This document shows, piece after piece, positions 21,716-44,819 of a stretch of 64,000 nucleotides of DNA. Location of the stretch: contig NC_013131.1 in NCBI RefSeq assembly GCF_000024025.1, positions 7,626,001 to 7,690,000 on the forward strand. Reading direction: 5' to 3'. Both the position numbers and the translations under genes were made by a program. Source of the stretch: Catenulispora acidiphila DSM 44928. GTDB taxonomy: Bacteria; Actinomycetota; Actinomycetes; Streptomycetales; Catenulisporaceae. A model generated the notes under the pieces. That model was not told the origin of the DNA. It saw only the letters and a program-made list of their open reading frames with translations, and ran no database searches. Each line of letters begins with the position of its first letter. Position 1 is the first letter of the stretch.

Positions 21716-23899
21716 TCAGCCGGTGGTGCAGGCGCTGCCGTTGACGGTGAACGCCGTCGGCGAGGCGCTGCTGGCGCTCCACGTGCCCTGGAACCCGAAT
21801 GAGGTGGTGGCTCCCGGGGCGATGGTGCCGTTGTAGCTCATGTTCGTCGCCGTGACGTTGGCGCCGGACTGGGTGACCGTGGCGTTCCAGCCGTTGGTGA
21901 CCTTCTCGTCGCCGGGGAAGGCGAAGCCGACGGTCCAGGAGGACCAGGCCGCCGTGCCGGTGTTCGCGACCGTCACGTTGGCGGTGAGCCCGCCGCCCCA
22001 GACGTTCGGCGCGTAGGTCACCTTGCAGGACGCGCCGGTGGAGCCGGCGCTCGTGGTGACCGCGAGCGTGCCGGAGCGCGCCGAGCGGTTTCCTGCAGTG
22101 TCGCGGGCATACACCGCGAAGGTGTAGGCGGTGGATGGAGTCAGGCCGGTGAGGGTCGCCGAGTTGGTGGTCGGAGAGGCGACGACGGTCTCGGTGCTGC
22201 CGTTGACCGCGACCACGTCGTATCCGGCCAGGCCGGTGCTGCTGGTGGAGGCGCTCCAGCTCAGCGTCGCCCCGGTGGACGTGACGTTCGAGGCGGTCGG
22301 GGTGCCCGGGGTGGTGGGCGGTGTGACCGTGGTGCCCGGCTTCAGCGTGACGACCGCGGCGCTGTAGGGCGCGATGGTCTGCGAGGACGCCGAGCCGGAG
22401 GCGGCGGTGGTGATGCCGGTGCCGGGCGGCGCCAGGGTCGCGACCGACGGGGCGCCGGAGGCCGGGGTGAAGCCGGTGTAGTTCAGGCCCACGGTGTAGC
22501 TGGTGGCCGGGTCGTCGTTCACCAGCAGGACCCGCAGCGAGCCGTCGGCGGCCTTGACCGCGTAGGACTTCAGCAGGCTCTGGCTGGAGGAGGCCGAGAC
22601 CAGGGCGTCGCCGGGATGGATGAACTGGCTCAGCAGCTGCGTGCCGTAGTAGGCGGGGAACGGCGTGTCGGCTGCGGGCTCGCAGACCCGGGAGCCGTTG
22701 ACCAGGCCGCAGCTGCCGTCGGAGAGCATGCCGTAGTCGCCGTAGGTGGCGGTGCCGTACAGCGAGGAGCTGGTGTTGCCGCCGGTCACGATGCCGTTGT
22801 GGATCTGCCACCAGTCGACGCTGGCGACGCCGTTCTGGATCCAGCCCAGGTAGTCCTGCGTCAGGTACAGCGCGTTGACGACGCTCAGGATCTGCTTGCC
22901 CGGGTTGGAGCTCACCGAGTTGGTCTCGGTGATCATGATCGGCACCGTCGAGGAGCCCTCCCACTGGCCCAGTTGCGAACGCAGCGTGGAGACCATCGTC
23001 GGGATCTGCGACGGGGCGGACAGCAGGGTGCTGTCACTCTCGTTGCCCGGGTTCTGCGGATACCAGTGCACGTCGGCGAAGCCGATCTGGCCGTTCAGCG
23101 CCGACATGACCGTCTGGTTCCAGGTCTGCGGGCTTCCGCCGTTGGTGACGCCGTCGGGCCAGTTGCCCGGGGCGGTCAGCACCACGCCGACGACGATCGT
23201 CGGGTCGACGGCCTTCATCGCCGCGATGTAGGCCTTGACGTTCTGGGCGTAGACCGCCGGTCCGCAGTTGGTCGGATTCGTGCCGGCCGCGCAGTGGTCG
23301 TCCGGCTCCCAGTTGGCGCCATAGGTCCCGTTGCCGTAGATCTCGTTGCCGATCTCCCAGTACTTGATGCCGTCGTGATGGGTCACGTTGGCGTACCGGA
23401 CCCAGTCCGCGGCGAACTGCGCGCCGGTCTCGGCAGGGCTCTGCGACGCGCCGGCGGCGTCGCCGGTGCCGTAGTCGACGGTGACCATGCCCTGGGCGCC
23501 GGTCTGGCTGAGCAGCGTCGCGTACTGGTCGAAGTCGACCGACTGGGCCAGGCCCGACTTCACATCGGTGTTGGTCTTCCAGTTGTAGGTGTCCGAGGAC
23601 GTCCCGCCGGGAAACCGGATCAGACCGGTCCCGGCGTTCTTCAGCAAGCCCGGGACCGCGGCGTCGGTGAGCGCGGCGTCGTAGACCGAACCGTTGGTGC
23701 CGATGGCGGTCGACGGGACGGTGGCGAGCGTCTGGCCGGCGTTCACCCCGACCGTGGCGGTCGAGGCCGCGGCGGCCGCCGGCCCGGCGCTCGCGGGCCC
23801 GGCGCTCGCCGCCAGCGGCACGGCGGCCGAGCCCACGAACAGCGCCGCCGCGGCGACAGCCGTCCAGGAGCGTGGGAACCGGCTTTGTCGTCTTCGCAT
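21716..23899 (-). CDS. Secreted clan GH-A glycosidase (GH51-like) with FN3 and CBM2
   Basis: 727 aa from ATG 23899, with AGGAGA upstream. The signal peptide spans about 1-35. The (beta/alpha)8-type domain (about 45-470) has LIRFPGGTSSDTYNW, the acid/base motif WEIGNEIYG (Glu near 186) and a nucleophile candidate in MITETNSVSS (Glu near 324). This layout is seen in alpha-L-arabinofuranosidase-like and endo-glucanase-like members of clan A. A C-terminal beta domain (VRLLVNDD-like region), an FN3 (about 535-620: ATLSWSASTSSTGLAGYDVV) and a CBM2 (about 628-727: CKVTYAPNVWGGGLTANVT, FGFQGTWS) follow. The CBM2 implies plant-wall or cellulose attachment. Exact specificity is not assignable by eye. 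Confidence 0.83.
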   Translation of the reverse strand: MRRRQSRFPRSWTAVAAAALFVGSAAVPLAASAGPASAGPAAAAASTATVGVNAGQTLATVPSTAIGTNGSVYDAALTDAAVPGLLKNAGTGLIRFPGGTSSDTYNWKTNTDVKSGLAQSVDFDQYATLLSQTGAQGMVTVDYGTGDAAGASQSPAETGAQFAADWVRYANVTHHDGIKYWEIGNEIYGNGTYGANWEPDDHCAAGTNPTNCGPAVYAQNVKAYIAAMKAVDPTIVVGVVLTAPGNWPDGVTNGGSPQTWNQTVMSALNGQIGFADVHWYPQNPGNESDSTLLSAPSQIPTMVSTLRSQLGQWEGSSTVPIMITETNSVSSNPGKQILSVVNALYLTQDYLGWIQNGVASVDWWQIHNGIVTGGNTSSSLYGTATYGDYGMLSDGSCGLVNGSRVCEPAADTPFPAYYGTQLLSQFIHPGDALVSASSSQSLLKSYAVKAADGSLRVLLVNDDPATSYTVGLNYTGFTPASGAPSVATLAPPGTGITTAASGSASSQTIAPYSAAVVTLKPGTTVTPPTTPGTPTASNVTSTGATLSWSASTSSTGLAGYDVVAVNGSTETVVASPTTNSATLTGLTPSTAYTFAVYARDTAGNRSARSGTLAVTTSAGSTGASCKVTYAPNVWGGGLTANVTVANTGTAAWSSWTVGFAFPGDEKVTNGWNATVTQSGANVTATNMSYNGTIAPGATTSFGFQGTWSASSASPTAFTVNGSACTTG

Positions 23900-24072
23900 C
23901 GAGCTCTCCTGGGCTGGGGGATGGTCGAGCTGGTCTGGCCTCACCCAGTGATGCTCGGCACCGGCCCGGAGACGGTCAAGGCGCGGATGTCCGTTCGACG
24001 CGCTGGTCTGCGCCGGAGCGTCGCAGAGCACGAAACTTCCACCGCGGCGCAGCCCGGCGCGCCCAGCGCCGG

Positions 24073-24768
24073 CTAGTTCACGAACACCGGCGGGCTCCCG
24101 GGGACGCTGGAGTCCACGACCGGCTGGTAGGTGAACGACATGAACTGGAGCGTCCCGCCGCACGGTCCGGGAGGGCCGCTCATGAGCTGGATCTTCTGGT
24201 TGAGGACGATCAGCCGGTTTCCGGGGTTTGCGTAGTTCCCCTGATAGATGCTGCCCACCGGCTGCCACACGCAGTTGAGCACGGCGCCGGGCACGGACTC
24301 CACGATGGTGAGCTGAACCGGCGCACCGGCCGGGACGAACTGCACGGGGAACCCGGCCGAGTCGTTGAACAGGACGTTGTTGTTCGGCAGGTTGTTCTCC
24401 GTCACGCTCAACACCGTCGATCCGGGGATGGTGGAGACGCACCCGCCGAAACCGAGAGCGGCCAGCTTGCTCACCGCGACCCCCGGCGCCGTCGGATTGG
24501 CCAGAACCTGCACTCCGATGTTCGACACCGAGCAGAAGGTGCCCACACCGCCTCCGGGAGCGGTGAGGAACGTGGCCTTGGTACCGGGCTGGAGGTTGCC
24601 GGTCAGGACCTGGCCGGGCGCGACGTTGGGACCGCCGGGTCCCGGGGCACCGTAGGTCAGGACGCTGACCGGTGCGGCGGCCGCCGACGCGGTGCCGACG
24701 ACCGCCACCGTGGCCAGCGCGGCCACGGCTGCTGCTACGGCGAATGCCTTGAGGCTGTGCATGTGCAT
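24073..24768 (-). CDS. Secreted hypothetical protein
   Basis: 231 aa from ATG 24768; a second ATG six bases on has better spacing from the GAAGAGG ribosome site, so the start may be 24762. A clear signal peptide ends near residue 31 (TASAAA). The mature protein is Gly/Pro/Val-rich, mostly beta, with three or four Cys (GTFCSVSNIG, FGGCVSTIPG, LNCVWQPVG, GPCGGTLQF) that would form two disulfides. No catalytic motif is visible. It sits upstream of the glycosidase on the same strand (about 170 bp gap) and divergent from a lectin gene. Confidence 0.7.
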   Translation of the reverse strand: MHMHSLKAFAVAAAVAALATVAVVGTASAAAAPVSVLTYGAPGPGGPNVAPGQVLTGNLQPGTKATFLTAPGGGVGTFCSVSNIGVQVLANPTAPGVAVSKLAALGFGGCVSTIPGSTVLSVTENNLPNNNVLFNDSAGFPVQFVPAGAPVQLTIVESVPGAVLNCVWQPVGSIYQGNYANPGNRLIVLNQKIQLMSGPPGPCGGTLQFMSFTYQPVVDSSVPGSPPVFVN

Positions 24769-24819
24769 CTACCTCTTCCCTGCAGGGAGCTCCGCACTTG
24801 CTTCGAACCGAGTGGTTCA

Positions 24820-24902
24820 TCAGTATTCTGGTTCACTCTCGACCGATTGCCCAGCCCCGTCCCGAGGGGTGAATCAGGGCTCATCATTCAGTACTCTGAT
24901 TC
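24820..24902. promoter_or_regulatory. Repeated 15-bp element between divergent secreted-protein genes
   Basis: TCAGTATTCTGGTTC (24820-24834) and TCAGTACTCTGATTC (24888-24902) match at 13 of 15 positions, 68 bp apart. The second copy also forms the right arm of GAATCAG / CTGATTC (24871-24877 and 24896-24902). The location is the shared promoter region, and the role is inferred. Confidence 0.4.
24869..24879 (+). promoter_or_regulatory. GTGAATCAGGG motif, copy 2
   Basis: Exact 11-mer 62 bp upstream of the lectin start at 24941, in the same orientation as copies 1 and 3 relative to their secreted-protein genes. Confidence 0.35.
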
Positions 24903-31675: not shown

Positions 31676-34498
31676 TCAGTTGTAGGTGACGATGTTGACT
31701 GGTCCGGCGTTGGTCGAGCTGACGGCTGCGCCGGTTCCGTCGATCACCGATTGGATGCCTCCGAAGTTGTTGAGCCATACGGTGAGCAGGTCGTGGAACA
31801 CGACACCGGAGGTGGTTGGGGCTTGGAACGCCTCCGAGCTTTCGATGGCCGGTCCGGCAGTGAAGTTGGAGTAGACGCCCATGCCGTAGCCCTGGAATGT
31901 GGTGACGCTGTTGGGGATGTAGAACCCCGGGTAGCCGTTCTGGGTGGAGGTGGCCATCCAGGACGCCTGGTTGGGCACGTCGTAGGGGTTCTCGTTCTGG
32001 AAGAAGATGACGGTGCCGCCTTGGCCGTTCCAGACCGTCTCGTACTTCTGGTAGTGCTCGACGGCCAGTCCGTAGGCGGTGACATTGGTGCCGTTGACGG
32101 TCAGCCCGGTGGCTGCGGTGTCCGAAGTCCAGGAACCGGAGCCGGTGCCGTGGTCGGCGCGCCAGGACCAGATGTCGTCCAGGATCGAGTTGTTGCTGTT
32201 GTCGATGAAGGCGTCGGTGACCGAGCCGGCGGTGGCGCCGCCGACGCGGAAGAACACGTCGTCCACGGTGACCGGGTCACTGGCGTGGCTGGTGGTGGAG
32301 CCGGCGGTGCCGATGGTGAGCAGGGTCGGCGAGGTGGTGGGTCCGGCGTCGAAGAGCAGGCCGGAGACGTTCACGCCGTTGACGTCGGCGACGGTCATCG
32401 TGGTCTGGCCGGCGCTGGGGACCAGCGTGGCGAACCCGAGTCCGACGATCTTGGTGTCGGCTTTGGTGACGTTGATGGTCTGGTTGTAGCTGTAGACGCC
32501 GGGGGTGAACAACAGGTTGTTGCCCGCGGCGAGCGCGGCGTTGATCTGGCTGATGGTGCTGGCGGAGTTGACGACGTAGAACGTGTTCAGCGACAGCGAG
32601 GTGCCAGGGGTGTTGCCGTTGGCCCAGGACGGTCCGCTGGAGTTGGTCCGCACCGAGGGCACGAACACGTTGTAGTTGCCGGAGGAATCGGTGTAGAGGT
32701 ACGGCGCTTCCTCGGTGGTCGGGCTGGTGGCCAGGGTGGAGTACGGCTGCGGACCGCCGGCTGAGACCGGGGTGGTGCCGAAGCTCTGCGCCGGTGCGCC
32801 GGGGTCGCCGCTGAACACCTGGTTCCACACGCCGTTGGTCCAGCTGCCGATGCTGGTGTTGCGCACCAGATACTGCTGCTGCGAGCCGTTCTCCACGGTG
32901 CCGTTGAGTTTGGAGTCGGCGATGAACCCGCCGCTGGACCAGCCCGGCGACCCGCCGCAGTAGTCCATCAGCGTGATGTTGCCGTTGACCGCGACCCGGC
33001 GCATCGGCGCGGCCTGCGAGGCGGCCCAGACGTCCTCACCGGCGTTGCAGCCGGTCAGGCCGGTGACGTTGATGGTCAGGTTCGACACCGAGCGCCAGAA
33101 GTTGTTGGTGGCGTAGCACTGGGTCTGGTCGCCGTTCGTGCACTGATTCCAGGAGTCGATCGTGCCGTTGATGACGACCTGGCTGGGATTCTGGCCCAGG
33201 CCCTCGACGCTCTCGTAGTAGCCGAGCTGGAAGTCCAGCGGGTTCGACGCCGAGCCGTAGGTCCCCGGCTGGAACAGGATCTCGTAGCGTTGCGCGCCGA
33301 ACTGGTTCGGCGCCTGCTGCGTCCCGATCGCGTTTAGCTGACTGGCGATCGCGCTCACCGACTGACTCGGGCTGATCACGATCACGTTCGGACCCAAGCT
33401 GCCGCCGGTACCGCCGCCGCTGGTGCCGATCGTGTAGGTGGCGCTGGCCACTGCCGAGTTCGTCATGCCCGAGGCGATCGCGATCGCGCTGACCGTGGTC
33501 GTCGCCGTGACGCTGATCGGACCGGAGTAAAGGGTCGACGAGGCTGTCGGCGTGCTTCCGTCGAGGGTGTAGCGGATGCTCGCACCGGAGGTCGCATCGG
33601 AGATCGTCACCGACTGGGCTGTCGTGTACGAACCGCCGGCCGGATTGAACGTCGGCGTCGCGGCCGTGCCACCGCCACCGGTGCTGCCGCCTTGTGTGTA
33701 GGTGAAGTGCGGCGTGTCGTACTGCGCACCGCTCTTCTCATAGGTGAACCAGTACTCGAGCACAGTGCCGGTTGTCAGTGAACTGACGGTCTGGGTCCAT
33801 GTGCCGGCGTTGTTGGTCATGCGGAAGTTCTGCTGACCGCCGCCGTTGACCAGGTAGTGGACGTCGACATAGGCCGCCGGTGTGATCGGGGTGATCGAGA
33901 GTTGAGCCTGCGTCGCGTTCAGCTGCGTCGCACTCTGCGTGTAGTCGGGCGAGGAGGAGCCGCCGCCACCGCTGGTGCCGCCTGTGCCGTAGACCTGGAA
34001 CTCCCAGAGCGAATAACCGTAGGGCGTGGCTCGGGCCGTGCCGTTCATCCGCACGTAGCGGCCGGAGCCGGCGACGGTCAGCGTTTGCACGCCGCCGGTG
34101 CTGGTCGTCGTGGAGTAGATCGACGTCCAGGTGGTTCCGTCGTTCGAGGTCTGGATCTGGTAGCCCGTCGCGTAAGCGGCTTCCCAGTTCAGCACGACCT
34201 TGTCGATGGTCGCCGTGGCGCCGAGATCGACCTCGAGCCATTGCGGGTCGCTGAACGCGCTGGACCAGCGGGTGGTGGTGCTGCCGTCCACAGCGTTCGA
34301 GGCCGGGTAGGTGGCGTTCTCCGCCGACGAAGCGGTTGCCGTTTTACCTTGCGAGAGCAGGGAATCGGCGGCGTGCGCGGTGGGCGCGACGACGGTGAGG
34401 AACGCGAGGCTCAGCGCGAGCAGCAGGAGGAACGCGGCATGTACCGAGCGGATCAGAGGTCTCCGGTGAAGCGTTCCACCGAAGGAGGGTGCCTTCAT
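31676..34498 (-). CDS. Secreted beta-helix enzyme with F5/8-type, CBM56 and chitobiase-like modules
   Basis: 940 aa from ATG 34498 (GGAG six bases upstream); the longer frame to 35056 lies over the next gene in another frame. Order: signal peptide (1-43); F5/8-type CBM32 (about 45-185, ATASSAENATYPASNAVDGS); CBM56 (about 190-285, HYLVNGGGQQNFRMTNNAG), a beta-1,3-glucan binder; CHB_HEX_C (about 300-375, IRYTLDGSTPTASSTLYSGP); then a ~540-residue beta-helix starting GPNVIVISPSQS. Such helices are often mislabelled adenylyl cyclase; no cyclase motif is present. CBM56 and the neighbouring GH16 point to beta-1,3-glucan as target. It is 44 bp behind the GH16 gene in one operon. Confidence 0.85.
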   Translation of the reverse strand: MKAPSFGGTLHRRPLIRSVHAAFLLLLALSLAFLTVVAPTAHAADSLLSQGKTATASSAENATYPASNAVDGSTTTRWSSAFSDPQWLEVDLGATATIDKVVLNWEAAYATGYQIQTSNDGTTWTSIYSTTTSTGGVQTLTVAGSGRYVRMNGTARATPYGYSLWEFQVYGTGGTSGGGGSSSPDYTQSATQLNATQAQLSITPITPAAYVDVHYLVNGGGQQNFRMTNNAGTWTQTVSSLTTGTVLEYWFTYEKSGAQYDTPHFTYTQGGSTGGGGTAATPTFNPAGGSYTTAQSVTISDATSGASIRYTLDGSTPTASSTLYSGPISVTATTTVSAIAIASGMTNSAVASATYTIGTSGGGTGGSLGPNVIVISPSQSVSAIASQLNAIGTQQAPNQFGAQRYEILFQPGTYGSASNPLDFQLGYYESVEGLGQNPSQVVINGTIDSWNQCTNGDQTQCYATNNFWRSVSNLTINVTGLTGCNAGEDVWAASQAAPMRRVAVNGNITLMDYCGGSPGWSSGGFIADSKLNGTVENGSQQQYLVRNTSIGSWTNGVWNQVFSGDPGAPAQSFGTTPVSAGGPQPYSTLATSPTTEEAPYLYTDSSGNYNVFVPSVRTNSSGPSWANGNTPGTSLSLNTFYVVNSASTISQINAALAAGNNLLFTPGVYSYNQTINVTKADTKIVGLGFATLVPSAGQTTMTVADVNGVNVSGLLFDAGPTTSPTLLTIGTAGSTTSHASDPVTVDDVFFRVGGATAGSVTDAFIDNSNNSILDDIWSWRADHGTGSGSWTSDTAATGLTVNGTNVTAYGLAVEHYQKYETVWNGQGGTVIFFQNENPYDVPNQASWMATSTQNGYPGFYIPNSVTTFQGYGMGVYSNFTAGPAIESSEAFQAPTTSGVVFHDLLTVWLNNFGGIQSVIDGTGAAVSSTNAGPVNIVTYN

Positions 34499-34542
34499 GA
34501 CATCTCCAGGTTGGTCGAGGTGCTTGGTTCCGGATCCAACGC

Positions 34543-36462
34543 CTAGCTGCCCATGACTTGGAACTCGTACAGGGAGTAGCCGTAGGGCGTGGCTCTGCTG
34601 GTGCCGTACATCCGTACGTAGCGGCCCGAGCCGCTGACCGTGAGGGTCTGGACGCCGCCGGTGCCGGTCGTCGTGGAGTAGATCGGCGTCCAGGTGGTCC
34701 CGTTGGTGGAGGTCTGGATCTGGAAGGCCGTCGCGTAGGCCGCCTCCCAGTTCAGGGTCACGCGGGAGATGGAATGGGTCGCACCGAGGTCGACCTGGAG
34801 CCACTGGGGGTCGCTGAACGCGCTCGACCAGCGCGTGGTGGTGTTGCCGTCCACGGCGTTCGAGGCCGGGTAGGTGGCGTTCTCCACCGACGAAGCGGTC
34901 GCGGGATGGCCTTGGGACAACAGGGTTCCGCCGGTGCTGCCGCCGCCTTGTGTGTAGGTGAAGTGGGGCGTGTCGTACTGTGCGCCGTTCTTTTCGTAGG
35001 TGAACCAGTACTCGACGACAGCGCCGGTCGTCAGAGAGCTGACAGTCTGGGTCCATGTGCCGGCGTTGTTGGTCATGCGGAAGTTCTGCTGACCGCCGCC
35101 GTTGACGAGGTAGTGGACGTCGACATAAGCCGCCGGTGTGGTCGGGGTGATCGAGAGCTGAGCCTGCGTCGCGTTCAGCTGCGTCGCGCTTTGTGTGTAG
35201 TCAGGCGAGTTGGACCCGCCGATCGTGTAGGTCGCGCTCGCCGTCGCGGAGTTCGTCAGACCGGACGCCAGGCCTATGGCCTTGACCGTGGTCGTCGCGG
35301 CGATGGTGATCGGCCCGGTGTAGAGGGTCGATGACGCCGTCGGGGTGCTTCCGTCCAGGGTGTAGCGGATGCTCGATCCCGGCGTCGTGTCCGACAACGT
35401 CACCGACTGCGCCGAGGCGTACGTGCCGCCGGCCGGATTGAACGTCGGCGTGGCGACGGACTGGCCGCCGCCCTGCTGGGTCGTGTACACGGCGACGTAG
35501 TCCACGGTCATCGGCGCGCCGGAGGTGGTGGCCGCCGTCGGCTCAGTGCACTGGCACACGTTGAACGGGTAGACGCCGCCGATGGCCACGTTGAGGATCG
35601 CGAAGAATCCGTGGTCGACGGCCGTCGCCCAGGTGTTCGCGTCGACCTGGTTCTGGTTGACGGTGTGCTGCAGGACGTTGTCGGTGTAGAACCGCAGCTG
35701 CTCGGCGTTGGCGTTCGTCCGGTCGATGATGACCGAGTAGGTGTGGAACGCGGTCTGGCAGCCGCCGCAGGCGAGCAGGCCGCTGCTGATGCCGGTGGTC
35801 TCGTTGCACGGGCCGCCGGGATCGACGCCGCAGTGGAACGTGTGCGACACCTCTGACAGGGCATTGACATCCTCCATGATGTCGAGCTCGCCGATGCTCG
35901 GCCAGTTGGTGGCGCCGACCGGACGGGCGTTCGCGCCCATGGCCCAGAAGGCCGGCCAGTAGCCGAGGCCGTTCGCCGGGTTCGGTTGCTGGAGCGAGGC
36001 GGTGATCTCCATCTGGCCGCCCGCCGGCGCCGCGAAGTCGGTGCGCGCGGTCTCCACACGTCCGGACGTCCAGGCGCCCTGCGCGTCCCTGATCGGCTTG
36101 ATGACGAGGTGGCCGGCGCCGTCCTGGTAGACGTTCTGGGTCGAGTTGGTCTCGGACTCGACCTCGCCGGTGCCCCAGTTGCCGGCGCCGCCGGGGTAGC
36201 TCGTGCCCAGATCGTAGATCCAGTTGCTGTCGATGGGGGTGTTCGCGGCGCCGGTGAAGTCGTCGCTGAAGGCTGTGGTCCAGCCGGAGGGCGGGGCGGG
36301 GACCGCGGACGGGATCGCGGCCGGCGCTACGGCTGGGACTGCGGCCGGGACAGCGGCCGAGGCAGACGGTGGAAAGGCGACCGCGACGGTCGCGGCGATC
36401 GGCGCCACCGCGGCGACGATCGCCAGGACGGTGCGGCGCCACCGGTGGAGAGCAGTACCCAT
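34543..36462 (-). CDS. Secreted GH16 beta-glucanase with chitobiase-like, CBM56 and F5/8 modules
   Basis: 639 aa from ATG 36462 (AGGAG six bases upstream). The signal peptide is followed by an Ala/Pro linker. GH16 jelly roll (about 55-300): FSDDFTGAANTPIDSNW, LGYWPAFWAMG and the catalytic GELDIMED (nucleophile and acid/base Glu near 190-195), of the laminarinase-type ExDxxE form. Then CHB_HEX_C (about 315-400), CBM56 (about 405-495) and F5/8 CBM32 (about 505-638). These accessory modules are the same three as in the neighbouring beta-helix enzyme but in reverse order. It cleaves beta-1,3 (or mixed) glucan outside the cell. LacI-type operators lie in its promoter region. Confidence 0.92.
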   Translation of the reverse strand: MGTALHRWRRTVLAIVAAVAPIAATVAVAFPPSASAAVPAAVPAVAPAAIPSAVPAPPSGWTTAFSDDFTGAANTPIDSNWIYDLGTSYPGGAGNWGTGEVESETNSTQNVYQDGAGHLVIKPIRDAQGAWTSGRVETARTDFAAPAGGQMEITASLQQPNPANGLGYWPAFWAMGANARPVGATNWPSIGELDIMEDVNALSEVSHTFHCGVDPGGPCNETTGISSGLLACGGCQTAFHTYSVIIDRTNANAEQLRFYTDNVLQHTVNQNQVDANTWATAVDHGFFAILNVAIGGVYPFNVCQCTEPTAATTSGAPMTVDYVAVYTTQQGGGQSVATPTFNPAGGTYASAQSVTLSDTTPGSSIRYTLDGSTPTASSTLYTGPITIAATTTVKAIGLASGLTNSATASATYTIGGSNSPDYTQSATQLNATQAQLSITPTTPAAYVDVHYLVNGGGQQNFRMTNNAGTWTQTVSSLTTGAVVEYWFTYEKNGAQYDTPHFTYTQGGGSTGGTLLSQGHPATASSVENATYPASNAVDGNTTTRWSSAFSDPQWLQVDLGATHSISRVTLNWEAAYATAFQIQTSTNGTTWTPIYSTTTGTGGVQTLTVSGSGRYVRMYGTSRATPYGYSLYEFQVMGS

Positions 36463-36524: not shown

Positions 36525-36540
36525 CCGTATACGTTTCCGG
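36525..36540. promoter_or_regulatory. LacI-type operator O1
   Basis: CCGTATACGTTTCCGG, centre CG, 63 bp upstream of the GH16 start. It shares ACGTTTCCG with operator 3 and CGTTTCCGG with operator 2. Confidence 0.7.
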
Positions 36541-36559
36541 CTCGGTGAGAGAATCCGGA

Positions 36560-36570
36560 CCCTGATTCAC
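36560..36570 (-). promoter_or_regulatory. GTGAATCAGGG motif, copy 3
   Basis: Exact 11-mer on the minus strand, pointing to the GH16 gene and 98 bp upstream of its start. Confidence 0.35.
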
Positions 36571-36693
36571 TCAAACGGGTCCCGTGGCGTGGATTCCCTT
36601 GCCGGGCATGATGAACAGGCGTTTTGCTGATCGGCAGATCTGGTGTGCGCTGGGCGGGCTGCCGGGTGGCGGCCCCGGCGCGGCGGCGCGTGT

Positions 36694-36709
36694 CCGGAAG
36701 CGTTTCCGG
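36694..36709. promoter_or_regulatory. LacI-type operator O2
   Basis: CCGGAAGCGTTTCCGG, an almost perfect inverted repeat centred on CG, midway between the divergent genes. Confidence 0.75.
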
Positions 36710-36857
36710 CCACTGTCGCGGAAGATTACCTTGCTGTTTCGTCCGTCTGACGCGGATGGTGCACCCGCCCTCTGCCGCTGTCAAGGTTCTGCGGCGCCCG
36801 CCGACCGGTTCTTTGCCAGAACCGGGGCGCGGCATGGTCTTCCCCCGCGAACGAGGA

Positions 36858-36873
36858 CCGGATACGTTTCCGA
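36858..36873. promoter_or_regulatory. LacI-type operator O3
   Basis: CCGGATACGTTTCCGA, ending two bases before the probable GTG start of the regulator, so binding there would block its own expression. Confidence 0.75.
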
Positions 36874-36875
36874 AT

Positions 36876-37928
36876 GTGGTGGACATCCGCGAGCTGGCCC
36901 GCCGTAGCGGGGTATCGCAGGCAACTGTGTCACGGGCGCTCAACGACCGTACGGAGGTGAGCACGGAGACCCGGCGCCGCATCCTGGAACTCGCCGAGGA
37001 ACTCGGCTACACCCCCAATCAGCCGGCCCGCACCCTGGTCCGGCGCCGCTCGGACATGATCGGTCTGCTCTGGGACACCGGCTACGCCAACGAGGGCCGC
37101 CGCCCGGCCTTCTTGCTCGACCTGTTCGTCGGCATCAAGCAGGCGCTGACCGCCGGCGGCTTCCATCTCATGGTCCTGTCGGTCGCCGACACCGCCGGCG
37201 TGGACGCCTACCTGCGAGCCGCCCGCCAGCACAGCCTCGACGGCGTCATCATGATGGGCGTCGACGAAGGCCACCCGGCCATCACGGCCCTCGTCGACTC
37301 CGGCATCGCCTGCGTCGGCATAGACCTCCCGCTGCAACGCAAACGCACCACCTACGTCACCTCCGACAACCGCAGCGGCGCAGCCAGCGCGGTCCGCCAC
37401 CTGCACTCCCTCGGCCACCGCGCGATCGCGACCATCACCGGCCCGCTCCCCGCGATGCCCGCCGCCGAACGCCTAGCCGGCTACCGCTACGAAATGGCCC
37501 GCGTAGGCCTCGACCCCCACCCGGAGTACATCGAGCACGGCGACTTCTACCTCTCCAGCGGCTACGAATGCGCCCAGCGCCTGATCGCCCTGCCCGAACC
37601 CCCCACAGCCATCTTCGCCGCCGGCGACGAAATGGCCATCGGCGCCATGCAAGCCCTCCACGACGCCGGCATCTCAGTCCCCGCAGACGTGGCAGTCGTC
37701 GGCTTCGACGACATCGAGGCCGCCTCACTGGTCCGCCCGGCACTCACGACCGTCGCCCAGGACCGCGTCAGCATCGGCGTCGGCGCAGTCGAGACACTCC
37801 TGACCGCCATCGGCTCCCCCGACGACGACACCCGCGACGCGAAGCGGGACACGCACCCGACGGCCGCCGCGCCGCTTCTCATCCCCACGCAGCTCATCGT
37901 GCGGGGGTCGTGCGGGTCGGTGCGGTGA
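36876..37928 (+). CDS. LacI-family transcriptional regulator
   Basis: 350 aa from GTG 36876 (36879 is also possible). The family nearly always begins a few residues before the HTH, as in VVDIRELARRSGVSQATVSRALN, so the longer frame from 36624 is rejected. HTH and hinge helix (about 3-60, YTPNQPARTLVRRRSDMIGLL) precede the periplasmic-binding-like core: GVIMMGVDEGHPAI, CVGIDLPLQ, VTSDNRSGAASAVRHLHSLGHR, IFAAGDEMAIGAMQALHDAG, VAVVGFDDIEAASLVRP. Three operators in its own promoter imply autoregulation and control of the divergent GH16/beta-helix operon, presumably released by a beta-glucan oligosaccharide. Confidence 0.93.
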   Translation: MVDIRELARRSGVSQATVSRALNDRTEVSTETRRRILELAEELGYTPNQPARTLVRRRSDMIGLLWDTGYANEGRRPAFLLDLFVGIKQALTAGGFHLMVLSVADTAGVDAYLRAARQHSLDGVIMMGVDEGHPAITALVDSGIACVGIDLPLQRKRTTYVTSDNRSGAASAVRHLHSLGHRAIATITGPLPAMPAAERLAGYRYEMARVGLDPHPEYIEHGDFYLSSGYECAQRLIALPEPPTAIFAAGDEMAIGAMQALHDAGISVPADVAVVGFDDIEAASLVRPALTTVAQDRVSIGVGAVETLLTAIGSPDDDTRDAKRDTHPTAAAPLLIPTQLIVRGSCGSVR

Positions 37929-42849: not shown

Positions 42850-44787
42850 TTACGGGTACGAGACGATGTCGCTCGGACCGGCGAACGTCGTGCTGACCGG
42901 GGCGCCGGTGCCGTTGATGACCGACTGGATGCCGCCGGAGCCGGTGAGGAACACCGTGAGGATGTCGTGGAACTGGACTCCGGGCGCCGGCGGGGACTGG
43001 AACGCCATCGAGTTCTCGATGTCCACGCCCTGGTTGAAGAAGGTGTAGCTGCCCATGCCGTAGCCCTGGAAGGTCTTCACGCGGTTGCCGACCAGGAAGG
43101 CGGGATAGCCCTTCTGCGTCGGGCTCGCCATCCACGAGGCCTGGTTCGGGACTTCGTACGGGTTCTCGTTCTGGAAGAAGATCACGGTGCCCTGCTGGCC
43201 GTTCCAGACCGTCTCGTTCTTCTGGAAGTGCTCGACGGCGAGTCCGTAGGCGGTGACGCCGTCGCCGTTGACGGTCAGGCCGGTGTCGGCCTGGTCGCCG
43301 GTCCAGGTGCCGGCGCCCGCGCCGTGGTCGGCGCGCCAGATCCAGACGTCGTCGAGGATGGAGTCGTTGCTGTTGTCGATGAAGGCGTCGTTCACGGTGC
43401 CCGCCGTCGCGCCGCCGACGCGGAAGAACACGTCGTCGACGGTGATCGGGTTCGCGGCGTGGCTGCCGGGCAGGGGCAGCGGCGCCAGGTCGAGCAGGGC
43501 CGGGGACTTGGTGGTGCCGGCGTCGAAGATCAGGCCGGACAGGGTGGTGCCGCCGGTGTCCGCGACGTCCATCGTCACGTTGCCGCTGCTCGGGATCAGA
43601 GTGGGGAAGCCGAGGCCGACGATCTGCGTGTTCGGCCACAGGACGTGGATCGTCCGCGGGACGTTGTAGACGCCCGGGGTGAACAGGAGGTCCTCGCCGA
43701 GCAGCAGCGCGGTGTTGATCTGCGAGACCGTGCTCGCCGGGTTCACCACGAAGAACTTGCTCAGCGGCAGCGAGGTCCCGGGGGTGTTGCCCGCAGCCCA
43801 CGTCGGTCCGCTCGAGTTCTTCTGGAGCGAGGGGACGAAGACGCGGTACTTACCGGAGTCGTCGAGGTAAAGGTACGGAGCTTCCTTGGTGACCGGGCAC
43901 GTGGCCAGCGTCGTGTAGGGCGCCGCGCCGCCGGGGTCGCCGGAGTTGGAGGCGAAGCTCTGCGCCGGAGCGCCGGGGTCCCCGCAGAAGACCTGATTCC
44001 ACACGCCGTTGGTCCAGCCGTCGAGGTCGGTGTCGCGGGTGATGTACTGCTGCTGCGAACCGTTGATGACCGTGCCGCCGGTGAACCGGGAGTCGGCGAT
44101 GAAGCCGCCGCTGGCGTAGTCCGGCGAGCCGTCGCAGTAGTCCATCAGGCTGACGTTGCCGTTGACGACGACCCGGCGGAGCGGGGCGGCCTGCGAGGCG
44201 GCCCAGAACTCGGTGTTCGCCTGGCAGCCGTTGCCCCCGGCGACGTTGATCGTCAGGTTCGTCACCGACCGCCAGAAGTTGTCGGTGGCGTTGCAGTTGG
44301 TCTGGCTGCCCATGCACTGGTTGTAGACGTCCAGCGAGCCGTTGATGACGGTCCGGTCCGGAGTGAGTCCGAGGCCTGACACGCTCGTGTAGTAGCCGAC
44401 CTGGAAGACCAGCGGATCGGCGAGGGACCCGTACGTCCCCGGCTTGAACAGCACCGCGTACCGCTCGGTGCCGAACTGGTTCGGCACCTGCTGGGCGGCG
44501 ATCGTGTCCAGCGTGCTCTGGATCGACGCCTGCGCCATCGACGGATCGAAGACGATCACGTTCGGGCCGAGGGCGCCGCCGGTGGGCGGAACGAGCGTCG
44601 CAGGACTCTGCTGCGCGCCGATCGCGGACGCGGCGTGGGTCGCGGACGCCGCCGCGGAAGCCGACGCGGAGGCCGTCGCGGTGAGGGCGGAGGCCGTCAC
44701 CAGGCCCAGCGCCGCCGCCGCGATCGTCAGAGCCCGCCCCGCGCGCCCGAGCGTGCGCGGTACGAGGAACCGTTCGGGTTTGATCAC
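42850..44787 (-). CDS. Secreted beta-helix protein, paralogue without binding modules
   Basis: 645 aa from GTG 44787 (AGGTGG three to four bases upstream, a tight spacing). A long signal peptide with an Ala/Ser-rich tail (to about 50) is followed directly by the beta-helix, GPNVIVFDPSMAQASIQSTL, YAVLFKPGTYGS, LRRVVVNGNVSLMDYCDGSPD and VWNGQQGTVIFFQNENPYEV. This aligns end to end with the helix of the modular enzyme at 31676-34498 but lacks CBM32, CBM56 and CHB_HEX. It is probably an extracellular polysaccharide-active enzyme, reaction unproven. An 18-bp palindrome lies 33 bp upstream. Confidence 0.83.
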   Translation of the reverse strand: MIKPERFLVPRTLGRAGRALTIAAAALGLVTASALTATASASASAAASATHAASAIGAQQSPATLVPPTGGALGPNVIVFDPSMAQASIQSTLDTIAAQQVPNQFGTERYAVLFKPGTYGSLADPLVFQVGYYTSVSGLGLTPDRTVINGSLDVYNQCMGSQTNCNATDNFWRSVTNLTINVAGGNGCQANTEFWAASQAAPLRRVVVNGNVSLMDYCDGSPDYASGGFIADSRFTGGTVINGSQQQYITRDTDLDGWTNGVWNQVFCGDPGAPAQSFASNSGDPGGAAPYTTLATCPVTKEAPYLYLDDSGKYRVFVPSLQKNSSGPTWAAGNTPGTSLPLSKFFVVNPASTVSQINTALLLGEDLLFTPGVYNVPRTIHVLWPNTQIVGLGFPTLIPSSGNVTMDVADTGGTTLSGLIFDAGTTKSPALLDLAPLPLPGSHAANPITVDDVFFRVGGATAGTVNDAFIDNSNDSILDDVWIWRADHGAGAGTWTGDQADTGLTVNGDGVTAYGLAVEHFQKNETVWNGQQGTVIFFQNENPYEVPNQASWMASPTQKGYPAFLVGNRVKTFQGYGMGSYTFFNQGVDIENSMAFQSPPAPGVQFHDILTVFLTGSGGIQSVINGTGAPVSTTFAGPSDIVSYP

Positions 44788-44819
44788 AATCCACCTAGCC
44801 TTCGTAGCGGATGCCTGTG

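What the first reader, a model, noticed from the sequence alone, without database searches (positions are those of the whole stretch)
31676..36462. Mirror-image modular architecture in two adjacent glucan enzymes
The GH16 protein is ordered GH16, CHB_HEX_C, CBM56, CBM32, while the next gene is ordered CBM32, CBM56, CHB_HEX_C, beta-helix. The three shared modules are nearly identical in protein and in much of their DNA (for example HYLVNGGGQQNFRMTNNAG in both). The catalytic domains sit at opposite ends with the binding modules facing each other across the 44-bp spacer. This suggests block-wise module copying within the operon and two enzymes built to sit on the same beta-1,3-glucan.
Basis: partly seen in the sequence, partly recalled or inferred. 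Interest (0 to 1): 0.6.

Follow-up and report, generated by a model that had tools for sequence, protein, structure and literature searches.

The report
Mosaic glucanase pair sharing binding modules
Two neighbouring genes of a soil actinobacterium make a likely chain-cutting and a likely chain-end-trimming beta-1,3-glucan enzyme that carry the same three accessory modules in opposite order; the order largely follows from how such enzymes are normally built, and the modules seem to have been moved one by one between genes, a known kind of evolution seen here in an instructive case.

Summary
The architecture is real. Gene 1 (34543-36462, -) is GH16-CHB_HEX_C-CBM56-CBM32; gene 2 (31676-34498, -) is CBM32-CBM56-CHB_HEX_C-GH55; the spacer is 44 bp. 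"Nearly identical" holds only for CBM56 (95.5% protein, 92% DNA). CBM32 (84/82%) and CHB (78/79%) are about as close to modules of other genes. The genome's only two CBM56 and only two CHB_HEX_C_1 hits lie here.

The mirror mostly follows family convention: in the relatives kept (one GH16-GH55 fusion aside), CBM56 sits behind GH16 in 15 of 15 ORFs and before GH55 in 61 of 61. A block copy does not fit. Gene 2 looks mosaic: signal peptide and CBM32 resemble another GH55 gene, its CBM56-CHB front is typical of a distant GH55 lineage, its catalytic domain belongs to a Catenulispora clade. The Catenulispora rubra draft locus lacks both CBM32s and the gene boundary.

Copying between neighbours is clearest at a second GH16/GH55 locus: in 4 of 7 Catenulispora genomes examined the N-terminal CBM32s of the two genes are closer to each other than to any orthologue (in 3 not), and a gene-wise tree is rejected (AU p = 7.5e-5).

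Function, inferred: a LacI-controlled endo/exo beta-1,3-glucanase pair. New member of a known kind.

The parts
34543..36462 (-). Gene 1: GH16 glucanase with signal-peptide-like start, 639 aa (GH16-CHB_HEX_C-CBM56-CBM32)
35473..36312 (-). GH16 catalytic domain with GELDIME motif; best solved relative 3dgt (endo-1,3-beta-glucanase)
35215..35460 (-). CHB_HEX_C_1 module 1 (CHB1)
   Evidence: PF13290 E 1.8e-22
34945..35208 (-). CBM56 copy a
   Evidence: PF22184 E 8.9e-32; 5t7a E 1.7e-21
34546..34923 (-). CBM32 (F5/8 type C) copy a
   Evidence: 4zy9 E 9.2e-38
34499..34542 (-). 44-bp intergenic spacer with a GGAG ribosome-binding-like stretch before the ATG
31676..34498 (-). Gene 2: GH55 glucanase, 940 aa (signal-peptide-like start-CBM32-CBM56-CHB_HEX_C-GH55)
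34364..34498 (-). Signal-peptide region of gene 2, homologous to that of paralogous GH55 gene X (own copy G000:C1 about 3885270-3888180)
33992..34363 (-). CBM32 copy b, grouped with copy a inside the first-module clade of gene X
33689..33952 (-). CBM56 copy b
33422..33664 (-). CHB_HEX_C_1 module 2 (CHB2)
31679..33397 (-). GH55 catalytic domain of a Catenulispora clade; 12 of 13 checked active-site and subsite residues as in 4pew
36876..37928 (+). Divergent LacI-family regulator (GTG start inferred)
36525..36540 (.). operator-like palindrome 1 (3 mismatches to site 2), beside gene 1
   Evidence: 16 of 16 bases identical in C. rubra
36694..36709 (.). operator-like palindrome 2, CCGGAAGCGTTTCCGG
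   Evidence: 16 of 16 bases identical in C. rubra
36858..36873 (.). operator-like palindrome 3, directly before the inferred LacI start
   Evidence: 16 of 16 bases identical in C. rubra

Best explanation
This is an operon for two separately secreted beta-1,3-glucanases under a neighbouring LacI-type regulator (operon and control inferred from position and conserved palindromes). The GH16 enzyme is predicted to cut beta-1,3-glucan chains internally and the GH55 enzyme to trim the new non-reducing ends. CBM56 holds both on insoluble beta-1,3-glucan; the CBM32s, closest in the PDB to chitosan-binding modules of a Paenibacillus glucanase/chitosanase, may add contact to another fungal-wall polymer. 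The mirror layout is not an adaptation of the pair as such. GH16 enzymes carry CBM56 behind, GH55 enzymes carry CBM56-CHB in front, and the modules were moved one at a time: gene 2 joins a Catenulispora GH55 catalytic domain to a CBM56-CHB front of another GH55 lineage and to a signal peptide-CBM32 of the gene-X type. The two CBM56 copies share an origin in this locus, by duplication or conversion at about the time of the split from C. rubra. Shown here: architecture, copy numbers, gene trees, and module homogenisation at a second locus in 4 of 7 genomes. Inferred: enzyme activities, regulation, and the order of events.
For: Domains and PDB relatives. GH55 residues equivalent to SacteLam55A T149, F152, Q174, S198, W444, W446, D449, E480, H481, E502, Y505 and W196 are conserved (alignment; roles from PMC10637969 passages; a numbering offset of 44 is the only one from 0 to 119 that fits all 13 named residues). 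CBM56 raises activity on curdlan and pachyman in a GH81 enzyme (PMC9609564 passages). Family convention: 15 of 15 GH16 ORFs and 61 of 61 GH55 ORFs, one fusion aside. Mosaic gene 2: the GH55 tree places it in a Catenulispora clade (98*/99*), far from CBM56-CHB-GH55 proteins; SP-CBM32b matches gene X of G013 and C. rubra in DNA, including at least 18 bp upstream of the ATG, and in protein. CBM56 a, b and C. rubra are one clade (DNA 100/99; protein 83). Each CHB is nearest to its C. rubra counterpart. Second locus. Three palindromes between LacI and gene 1, each identical in C. rubra; 1 of 100 shuffles of the window had as many matches.
Against: Few informative columns: the CBM56 a+b pairing against C. 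rubra is weak (80/46), and a tree holding all 20 GH16-linked CBM56 together is not rejected (AU p = 0.20), so CBM56a could have come with GH16. CBM32a and b are sisters (98/92), so they may share an origin within the locus after all. CBM32b is further from gene X (dS 0.52-0.62) than the species are from each other at this locus and gene X (0.18-0.38), so the X-type piece is old or fast-evolving. At the second locus 3 of 7 genomes (C. rubra, G013, G012) do not show the within-genome copies as closest. The operator core has 5 genome sites against 4 for the reversed control, so it is not specific by itself. Y194 of SacteLam55A is not conserved. No activity, binding or expression was measured.
Confidence: 0.6

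Rival explanations
1. Fission (a question of order within or beside the best explanation): the ancestor was a single two-headed enzyme GH16-CHB-CBM56-CHB-GH55, as the C. rubra contig reads apart from a frame offset. In the window's species the central CBM56 was doubled and CBM32a, a stop, the spacer, a signal peptide and CBM32b were inserted, splitting one symmetric gene into a mirrored pair.
For: C. rubra locus layout, about 1.25 kb shorter. Natural single-ORF fusion GH16-CHB-GH55-CHB-CBM56-CHB-CBM56 in Ca. Solirubrobacter pratensis (L103), whose GH16 (support 89) and CBM56 (91) group with the window's in the protein trees, neither starred. CBM56 a-b (dS 0.34) are closer than either is to C. 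rubra (0.45, 0.69). The CBM32 tree nests a+b beside the own genome's X (99/75).
Against: The CBM56 DNA tree puts Solihabitans, not Solirubrobacter, next to the window's clade (85/83), and by path the GH16 of G001 is nearer than that of Solirubrobacter. The C. rubra contig is from a draft of about 870 contigs, has a frame offset in a G run of the linker, and ends inside a GH55 that is 97.3% identical to another C. rubra GH55. CBM32b is older than the species split by dS. The a+b grouping is weak (80/46).
Confidence: 0.3
2. Fusion by deletion: the mirrored two-gene pair is ancestral, and C. rubra lost the middle by recombination between the CBM56 direct repeats, joining the two genes.
For: The window's CBM56 copies are direct repeats (294 nt, 90%, spacing 1256) and the C. 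rubra locus is shorter by about one spacing, though any loss that leaves one CBM56 would be. The best listed match to the missing stretch in its assembly is 80% (40 of 285 candidates were scored).
Against: C. rubra CBM56 is b-like from its first bases and in the linker before it, so the junction would lie outside the shared module. The outside fusion in Solirubrobacter is not explained.
Confidence: 0.3
3. One reading: one three-module block copied within the operon and then reversed in order, or conversion along all three modules.
For: CBM56 and CHB_HEX_C_1 were found nowhere else in the genome; CBM32a and b are sisters (98/92).
Against: Unequal divergence of the three modules, different outside relatives, CHB pair older than the species split, no clear shared tracts. 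A block copy would keep the order.
Confidence: 0.1
4. Draft artefact: the short C. rubra locus is a collapsed assembly and its real locus looks like the window's.
For: The record title says NODE_108; the genome has about 870 contigs and 6% estimated contamination; frame offset and contig end inside a near-duplicate gene.
Against: No listed match elsewhere in the assembly carries the missing CBM32-spacer-CBM32 piece at more than 80% identity.
Confidence: 0.25

Closest known systems
Actinobacterial CBM56-CHB_HEX_C-GH55 and GH16-CBM56 glucanases
   Same: Same modules on the same sides of the catalytic domains (57 ORFs with CBM56-CHB(1-2)-GH55, 4 with CBM56-GH55, 14 with GH16-CBM56 among 83 CBM56-bearing ORFs).
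   Different: In the window the GH55 catalytic domain is of another clade, GH16 also carries CHB, both carry CBM32, and the two genes are adjacent.
SacteLam55A (Streptomyces sp. SirexAA-E, PDB 4PEW), GH55 exo-beta-1,3-glucosidase
   Same: Whole catalytic domain aligned, E 4.5e-145; catalytic, subsite -1 and aromatic-block residues conserved, with W196 (subsite +2).
   Different: Y194 (subsite +5) is not conserved; the window enzyme adds three accessory modules.
Caldicellulosiruptor bescii glucan degradation locus (CelA and neighbours)
   Same: Neighbouring multimodular enzymes with near-identical binding modules (CBM3b above 99% within one of them), identical GH48 domains and a swapped N-terminal catalytic domain (PMC6892212 passages); expansion by recombination after duplication has been proposed (PMC7142884 passages). 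The fused C. rubra and Solirubrobacter types resemble CelA in having two catalytic domains in one chain.
   Different: Cellulose, CBM3 and GH9/GH10/GH48 rather than beta-1,3-glucan, CBM56/CBM32 and GH16/GH55; the window pair is two proteins with modules in reverse order.
Paenibacillus sp. IK-5 glucanase/chitosanase CBM32 modules (PDB 4zy9, 4zz5)
   Same: Nearest solved relatives of CBM32a (E 9.2e-38; the strain name comes from PMC12154041 passages, and the link to these PDB entries is recalled).
   Different: Ligand-contact residues were not compared; chitosan binding is only a lead.

Membership tests
GH55 | Sequence match over the whole catalytic domain | tested here: met
   4pew E 4.5e-145 over residues 2-573 of 574
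GH55 | General acid Glu, assisting Tyr and proton-relay residues present | tested here: met
   12 of 13 residues named in PMC10637969 conserved, all catalytic ones included; Y194 not
GH55 | Hydrolyses beta-1,3-glucan | not testable with these tools
   needs an assay
GH16 laminarinase | Match to solved beta-1,3-glucanases | tested here: met
   3dgt E 8.9e-90, 7eo3 E 4.9e-78
GH16 laminarinase | ExDxxE catalytic motif | tested here: met
   GELDIME in the translation; the motif's role is recalled. No Pfam GH16 family other than a weak SKN1_KRE6 match was listed at E up to 1
CBM56 | Pfam model over the curated cut-off, full length | tested here: met
   109.6 and 105.4 bits against 27, positions 1-75 of 75
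CBM56 | Binds insoluble beta-1,3-glucan | not testable with these tools
   effect on curdlan known for a relative (PMC9609564)
CBM32 | F5/8 type C family match | tested here: met
   97.4 and 93.8 bits against 28.2
Concerted evolution by gene conversion, window pair | Copies within a genome closer than orthologues, for all three modules | tested here: inconclusive
   weakly for CBM56 only; not for CHB; no C. rubra counterpart of the CBM32s found at this locus
Concerted evolution by gene conversion, second locus | CBM32 copies of the two genes do not group by gene, and are closer within a genome than between genomes | tested here: met
   first part for the set of 7 genomes (6 label changes, AU p 7.5e-5); second part in 4 of 7 (own, G005, G006, G011), not in C. 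rubra, G013, G012

The most novel reading that the evidence does not exclude
The mirrored pair is the split product of a symmetric two-headed endo/exo enzyme (GH16-CHB-CBM56-CHB-GH55). Catenulispora keeps rewriting the binding modules of neighbouring endo/exo glucanases by gene conversion, so that partner enzymes share one binding front while their catalytic domains diverge.
Probability: 0.25. Interest if true: 0.55.

Novelty: new member of a known kind. Interest (0 to 1): 0.36.

Why it matters
It gives a small, testable natural series (two genes, a possible fusion in a sister species, a natural fusion in Solirubrobacter) for asking whether endo and exo glucanases work better tethered or apart. 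It also gives a case, clear in four of seven genomes, in which binding modules of neighbouring genes are homogenised while catalytic domains are not; this can mislead annotation and phylogeny of multimodular enzymes.

Tried and rejected
Rejected or left open: (1) an inverted-order block copy, because the modules differ in divergence and outside relatives. (2) Clear conversion tracts inside CHB or CBM32 (permutation p 0.088 and 0.16; CBM56 0.042, from seven pairs tried). (3) The claim that CBM56a was certainly taken from a GH55 gene: the tree suggests it, but the AU test does not reject all 20 GH16-linked CBM56 as one clade (p 0.20). (4) A LacI regulon read from the operator core: 5 genome sites against 4 for the reversed control, so only local clustering and conservation in C. 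rubra are used. (5) Sigma-70 and terminator scans gave nothing useful. (6) 'Adaptive mirror geometry': two separate proteins, so gene order has no spatial meaning. No structure prediction was run.

The Solirubrobacter link is weaker than I first held. For these reasons I lowered confidence in the best explanation from 0.62 to 0.60, in fission from 0.35 to 0.30, in the novel case from 0.30 to 0.25, and interest from 0.38 to 0.36.

Searches ('carbohydrate-binding module', 'gene conversion', 'module shuffling', 'glycoside hydrolase', at least 3 of 4; 'concerted evolution' with 'carbohydrate-binding module'; 'Catenulispora' with 'GH55'; 'gene conversion', 'CBM', 'cellulase', 'domain shuffling', at least 3 of 4; 12 of 26 listed; 'GH16', 'GH55', 'bifunctional', 'laminarinase') listed no paper whose title or abstract start describes this pair, such conversion in actinobacterial glucanases, or a GH16-GH55 fusion. 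The library holds open-licence papers only, so this does not show absence from print. Papers seen as passages only: PMC10637969, PMC12154041, PMC9609564, PMC7142884, PMC6892212; the others as listings.
Full report
Observation. Gene 1 spans 34543-36462 and gene 2 31676-34498, both on the minus strand, with 44 bp between them. Pfam gives CHB_HEX_C_1, CBM56 and F5/8 type C (CBM32) in gene 1 and the same three in reverse order in gene 2. The GH16 domain got only a weak SKN1_KRE6 match from Pfam but matches solved beta-1,3-glucanases (3dgt E 8.9e-90). The 'beta-helix' of gene 2 is GH55 (4pew E 4.5e-145). The window lies in a 10,467,782-base single-contig genome. Its size recalls Catenulispora acidiphila; that species name is my recall. 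The genus rests on the named same-genus relative C. rubra.

How alike are the modules? CBM56 95.5% protein, 92.0% DNA, dS 0.34; CBM32 83.7%, 82.1%, 0.53; CHB 77.8%, 78.6%, 0.62. Against the relatives collected, only the CBM56 pair stands out: next best outside Catenulispora 85.2%. CBM32b is slightly closer to CBM32 of a paralogous gene (84.7%) than to CBM32a; CHB1 matches a Kitasatospora CHB as well as it matches CHB2. Still, both CBM56 and both CHB_HEX_C_1 matches of the genome lie in these two genes, so the sharing is not chance.

Why a mirror? A scan of genome contigs with a CBM56 alignment confirmed 160 relatives, of which the best 80 were kept, 79 loci. Among their 83 CBM56-bearing ORFs: CBM56-CHB-GH55 40, CBM56-CHB-CHB-GH55 17, GH16-CBM56 14, CBM56 with neither catalytic domain found 6, CBM56-GH55 4, GH16-CHB-CBM56 1 (C. 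rubra), and one ORF with both enzymes. That fusion aside, CBM56 follows GH16 in 15 of 15 and precedes GH55 in 61 of 61; placing these two enzyme kinds side by side yields a mirror by itself. Unusual in the window are CHB behind GH16, the CBM32s, and the adjacency. CBM56 is rare: 3 of 14 genomes of the family, 16 of 391 drawn from the order.

Gene 2 looks mosaic. Its catalytic domain belongs to a Catenulispora clade (98*/99*) whose other members are three genes with a CBM4/9-like front (name by recall), one cut off by its contig start, and the C. rubra locus; it is far from the GH55 domains that normally follow CBM56-CHB (39 of 89 rows used). Its signal-peptide region and CBM32 match paralogous GH55 gene X: in DNA in G013 and C. 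rubra, from at least 18 bp before the ATG, and in protein in the own genome and others. In a tree of 54 CBM32 modules, which are not all those of these genomes, CBM32a and b are sisters (98/92) inside the first-module clade of gene X.

The sister species. In C. rubra DSM 44948 (handle G007; matched to the named contig by length and content), GH16-CHB1-CBM56 runs directly into CHB2-GH55, about 1.25 kb shorter (alignment offsets), with no CBM32 and no gene boundary, but with a frame offset in a G run of the linker. Each CHB is nearest to its C. rubra counterpart, so that duplication is older than the split. Its single CBM56 is nearer to copy b. Its GH55 is 97.3% identical to another C. rubra GH55, so catalytic domains may be exchanged too. 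The assembly is a draft (about 870 contigs, 6% estimated contamination), so an artefact cannot be excluded. A continuous ORF in Ca. Solirubrobacter pratensis (1393 codons, open to the contig end) reads GH16-CHB-GH55-CHB-CBM56-CHB-CBM56. In protein trees its GH16 (89) and CBM56 (91) group with the window's, while its GH55 does not. Against this, the CBM56 DNA tree puts Solihabitans next to the window's clade (85/83), and the GH16 of same-family genome G001, without CBM56, is nearer by path. A (CHB-CBM56) repeat cut at different points would give both CHB-CBM56 and CBM56-CHB. Whether the split pair came from a fusion or the reverse is open: the CBM56 DNA tree gives a+b together with only 80/46 support, and the AU test leaves a common GH16-linked origin possible (p 0.20).

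A clearer case of the same kind. At a second locus (own genome about 4.89 Mb) a GH55 and a GH16 gene are divergent and both begin with a CBM32. In the 7 genomes examined (of 10 of the genus; G008-G010, the less complete ones, were not examined) the two CBM32s of one genome are 85.6-99.7% identical in DNA. In 4 of 7 (own, G005, G006, G011) they are closer to each other than to any orthologue; in C. rubra, G013 and G012 they are not. In G005 they are 99.7% identical (third positions 99.2%), while G005 and G006 differ by 8% in the module and by about 3% in the catalytic domains. The DNA tree needs 6 changes between 'GH16' and 'GH55' labels for 7+7 rows, and a tree holding the GH16 copies together is rejected (AU p 7.5e-5; the grouping was tested after the protein tree suggested it). 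In four of these genomes the C-terminal CBM32 of the same GH16 proteins groups by gene, an internal control. This is good evidence for conversion between neighbouring glucanase genes in at least part of this genus.

Mechanism. GH16 as endo-enzyme and GH55 as exo-enzyme on beta-1,3-glucan is family knowledge; GH55 also has endo-acting members (PMC10637969 passages). Of 13 residues named there for SacteLam55A, 12 are conserved, all catalytic ones included; Y194 is not. CBM56 helps on insoluble linear glucan in a relative (PMC9609564). The CBM32s resemble modules of a glucanase/chitosanase (PMC12154041 passages). A LacI-family gene lies divergently upstream, with three palindromes between it and gene 1 that are identical in C. 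rubra. Together this suggests an induced secreted system against fungal-wall-type glucan; none of it was measured.

Known kind. Neighbouring multimodular enzymes with near-identical modules and exchanged catalytic domains are known from the C. bescii glucan degradation locus (PMC6892212, PMC7142884 passages). I therefore rate this a new member of a known kind, with moderate interest from the natural fusion series and the homogenised binding modules.

Noticed in passing
G000:C1 about 4890100-4895700 (L069) and L187-L192: Divergent GH55/GH16 pair whose N-terminal CBM32s are homogenised, clearly in 4 of 7 genomes.
   Followed up: yes
L103:2140-6318: Single ORF fusing GH16 and GH55 with CHB and CBM56 modules in Ca. 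Solirubrobacter pratensis; the ORF is open to the contig end.
   Followed up: partly
L013 / L063: Two C. rubra GH55 copies 97.3% identical in DNA; both contigs end near the 3' end of these genes.
   Followed up: partly
window 42850-44790 (-): A further GH55 gene in which Pfam found no binding module, about 6.4 kb from gene 1.
   Followed up: no
window 36525-36873: Three operator-like palindromes between a LacI-family gene and gene 1, each identical in C. rubra.
   Followed up: partly
window 21716-24820 (-): Long ORF whose later part reads like another secreted glycoside hydrolase with C-terminal accessory domains (by eye).
   Followed up: no
L110, L113, L166: In three Streptomyces a GH16-CBM56 gene follows another CBM56 gene; the two CBM56 kinds fall in separate clades, so no sign of homogenisation there.
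   Followed up: partly
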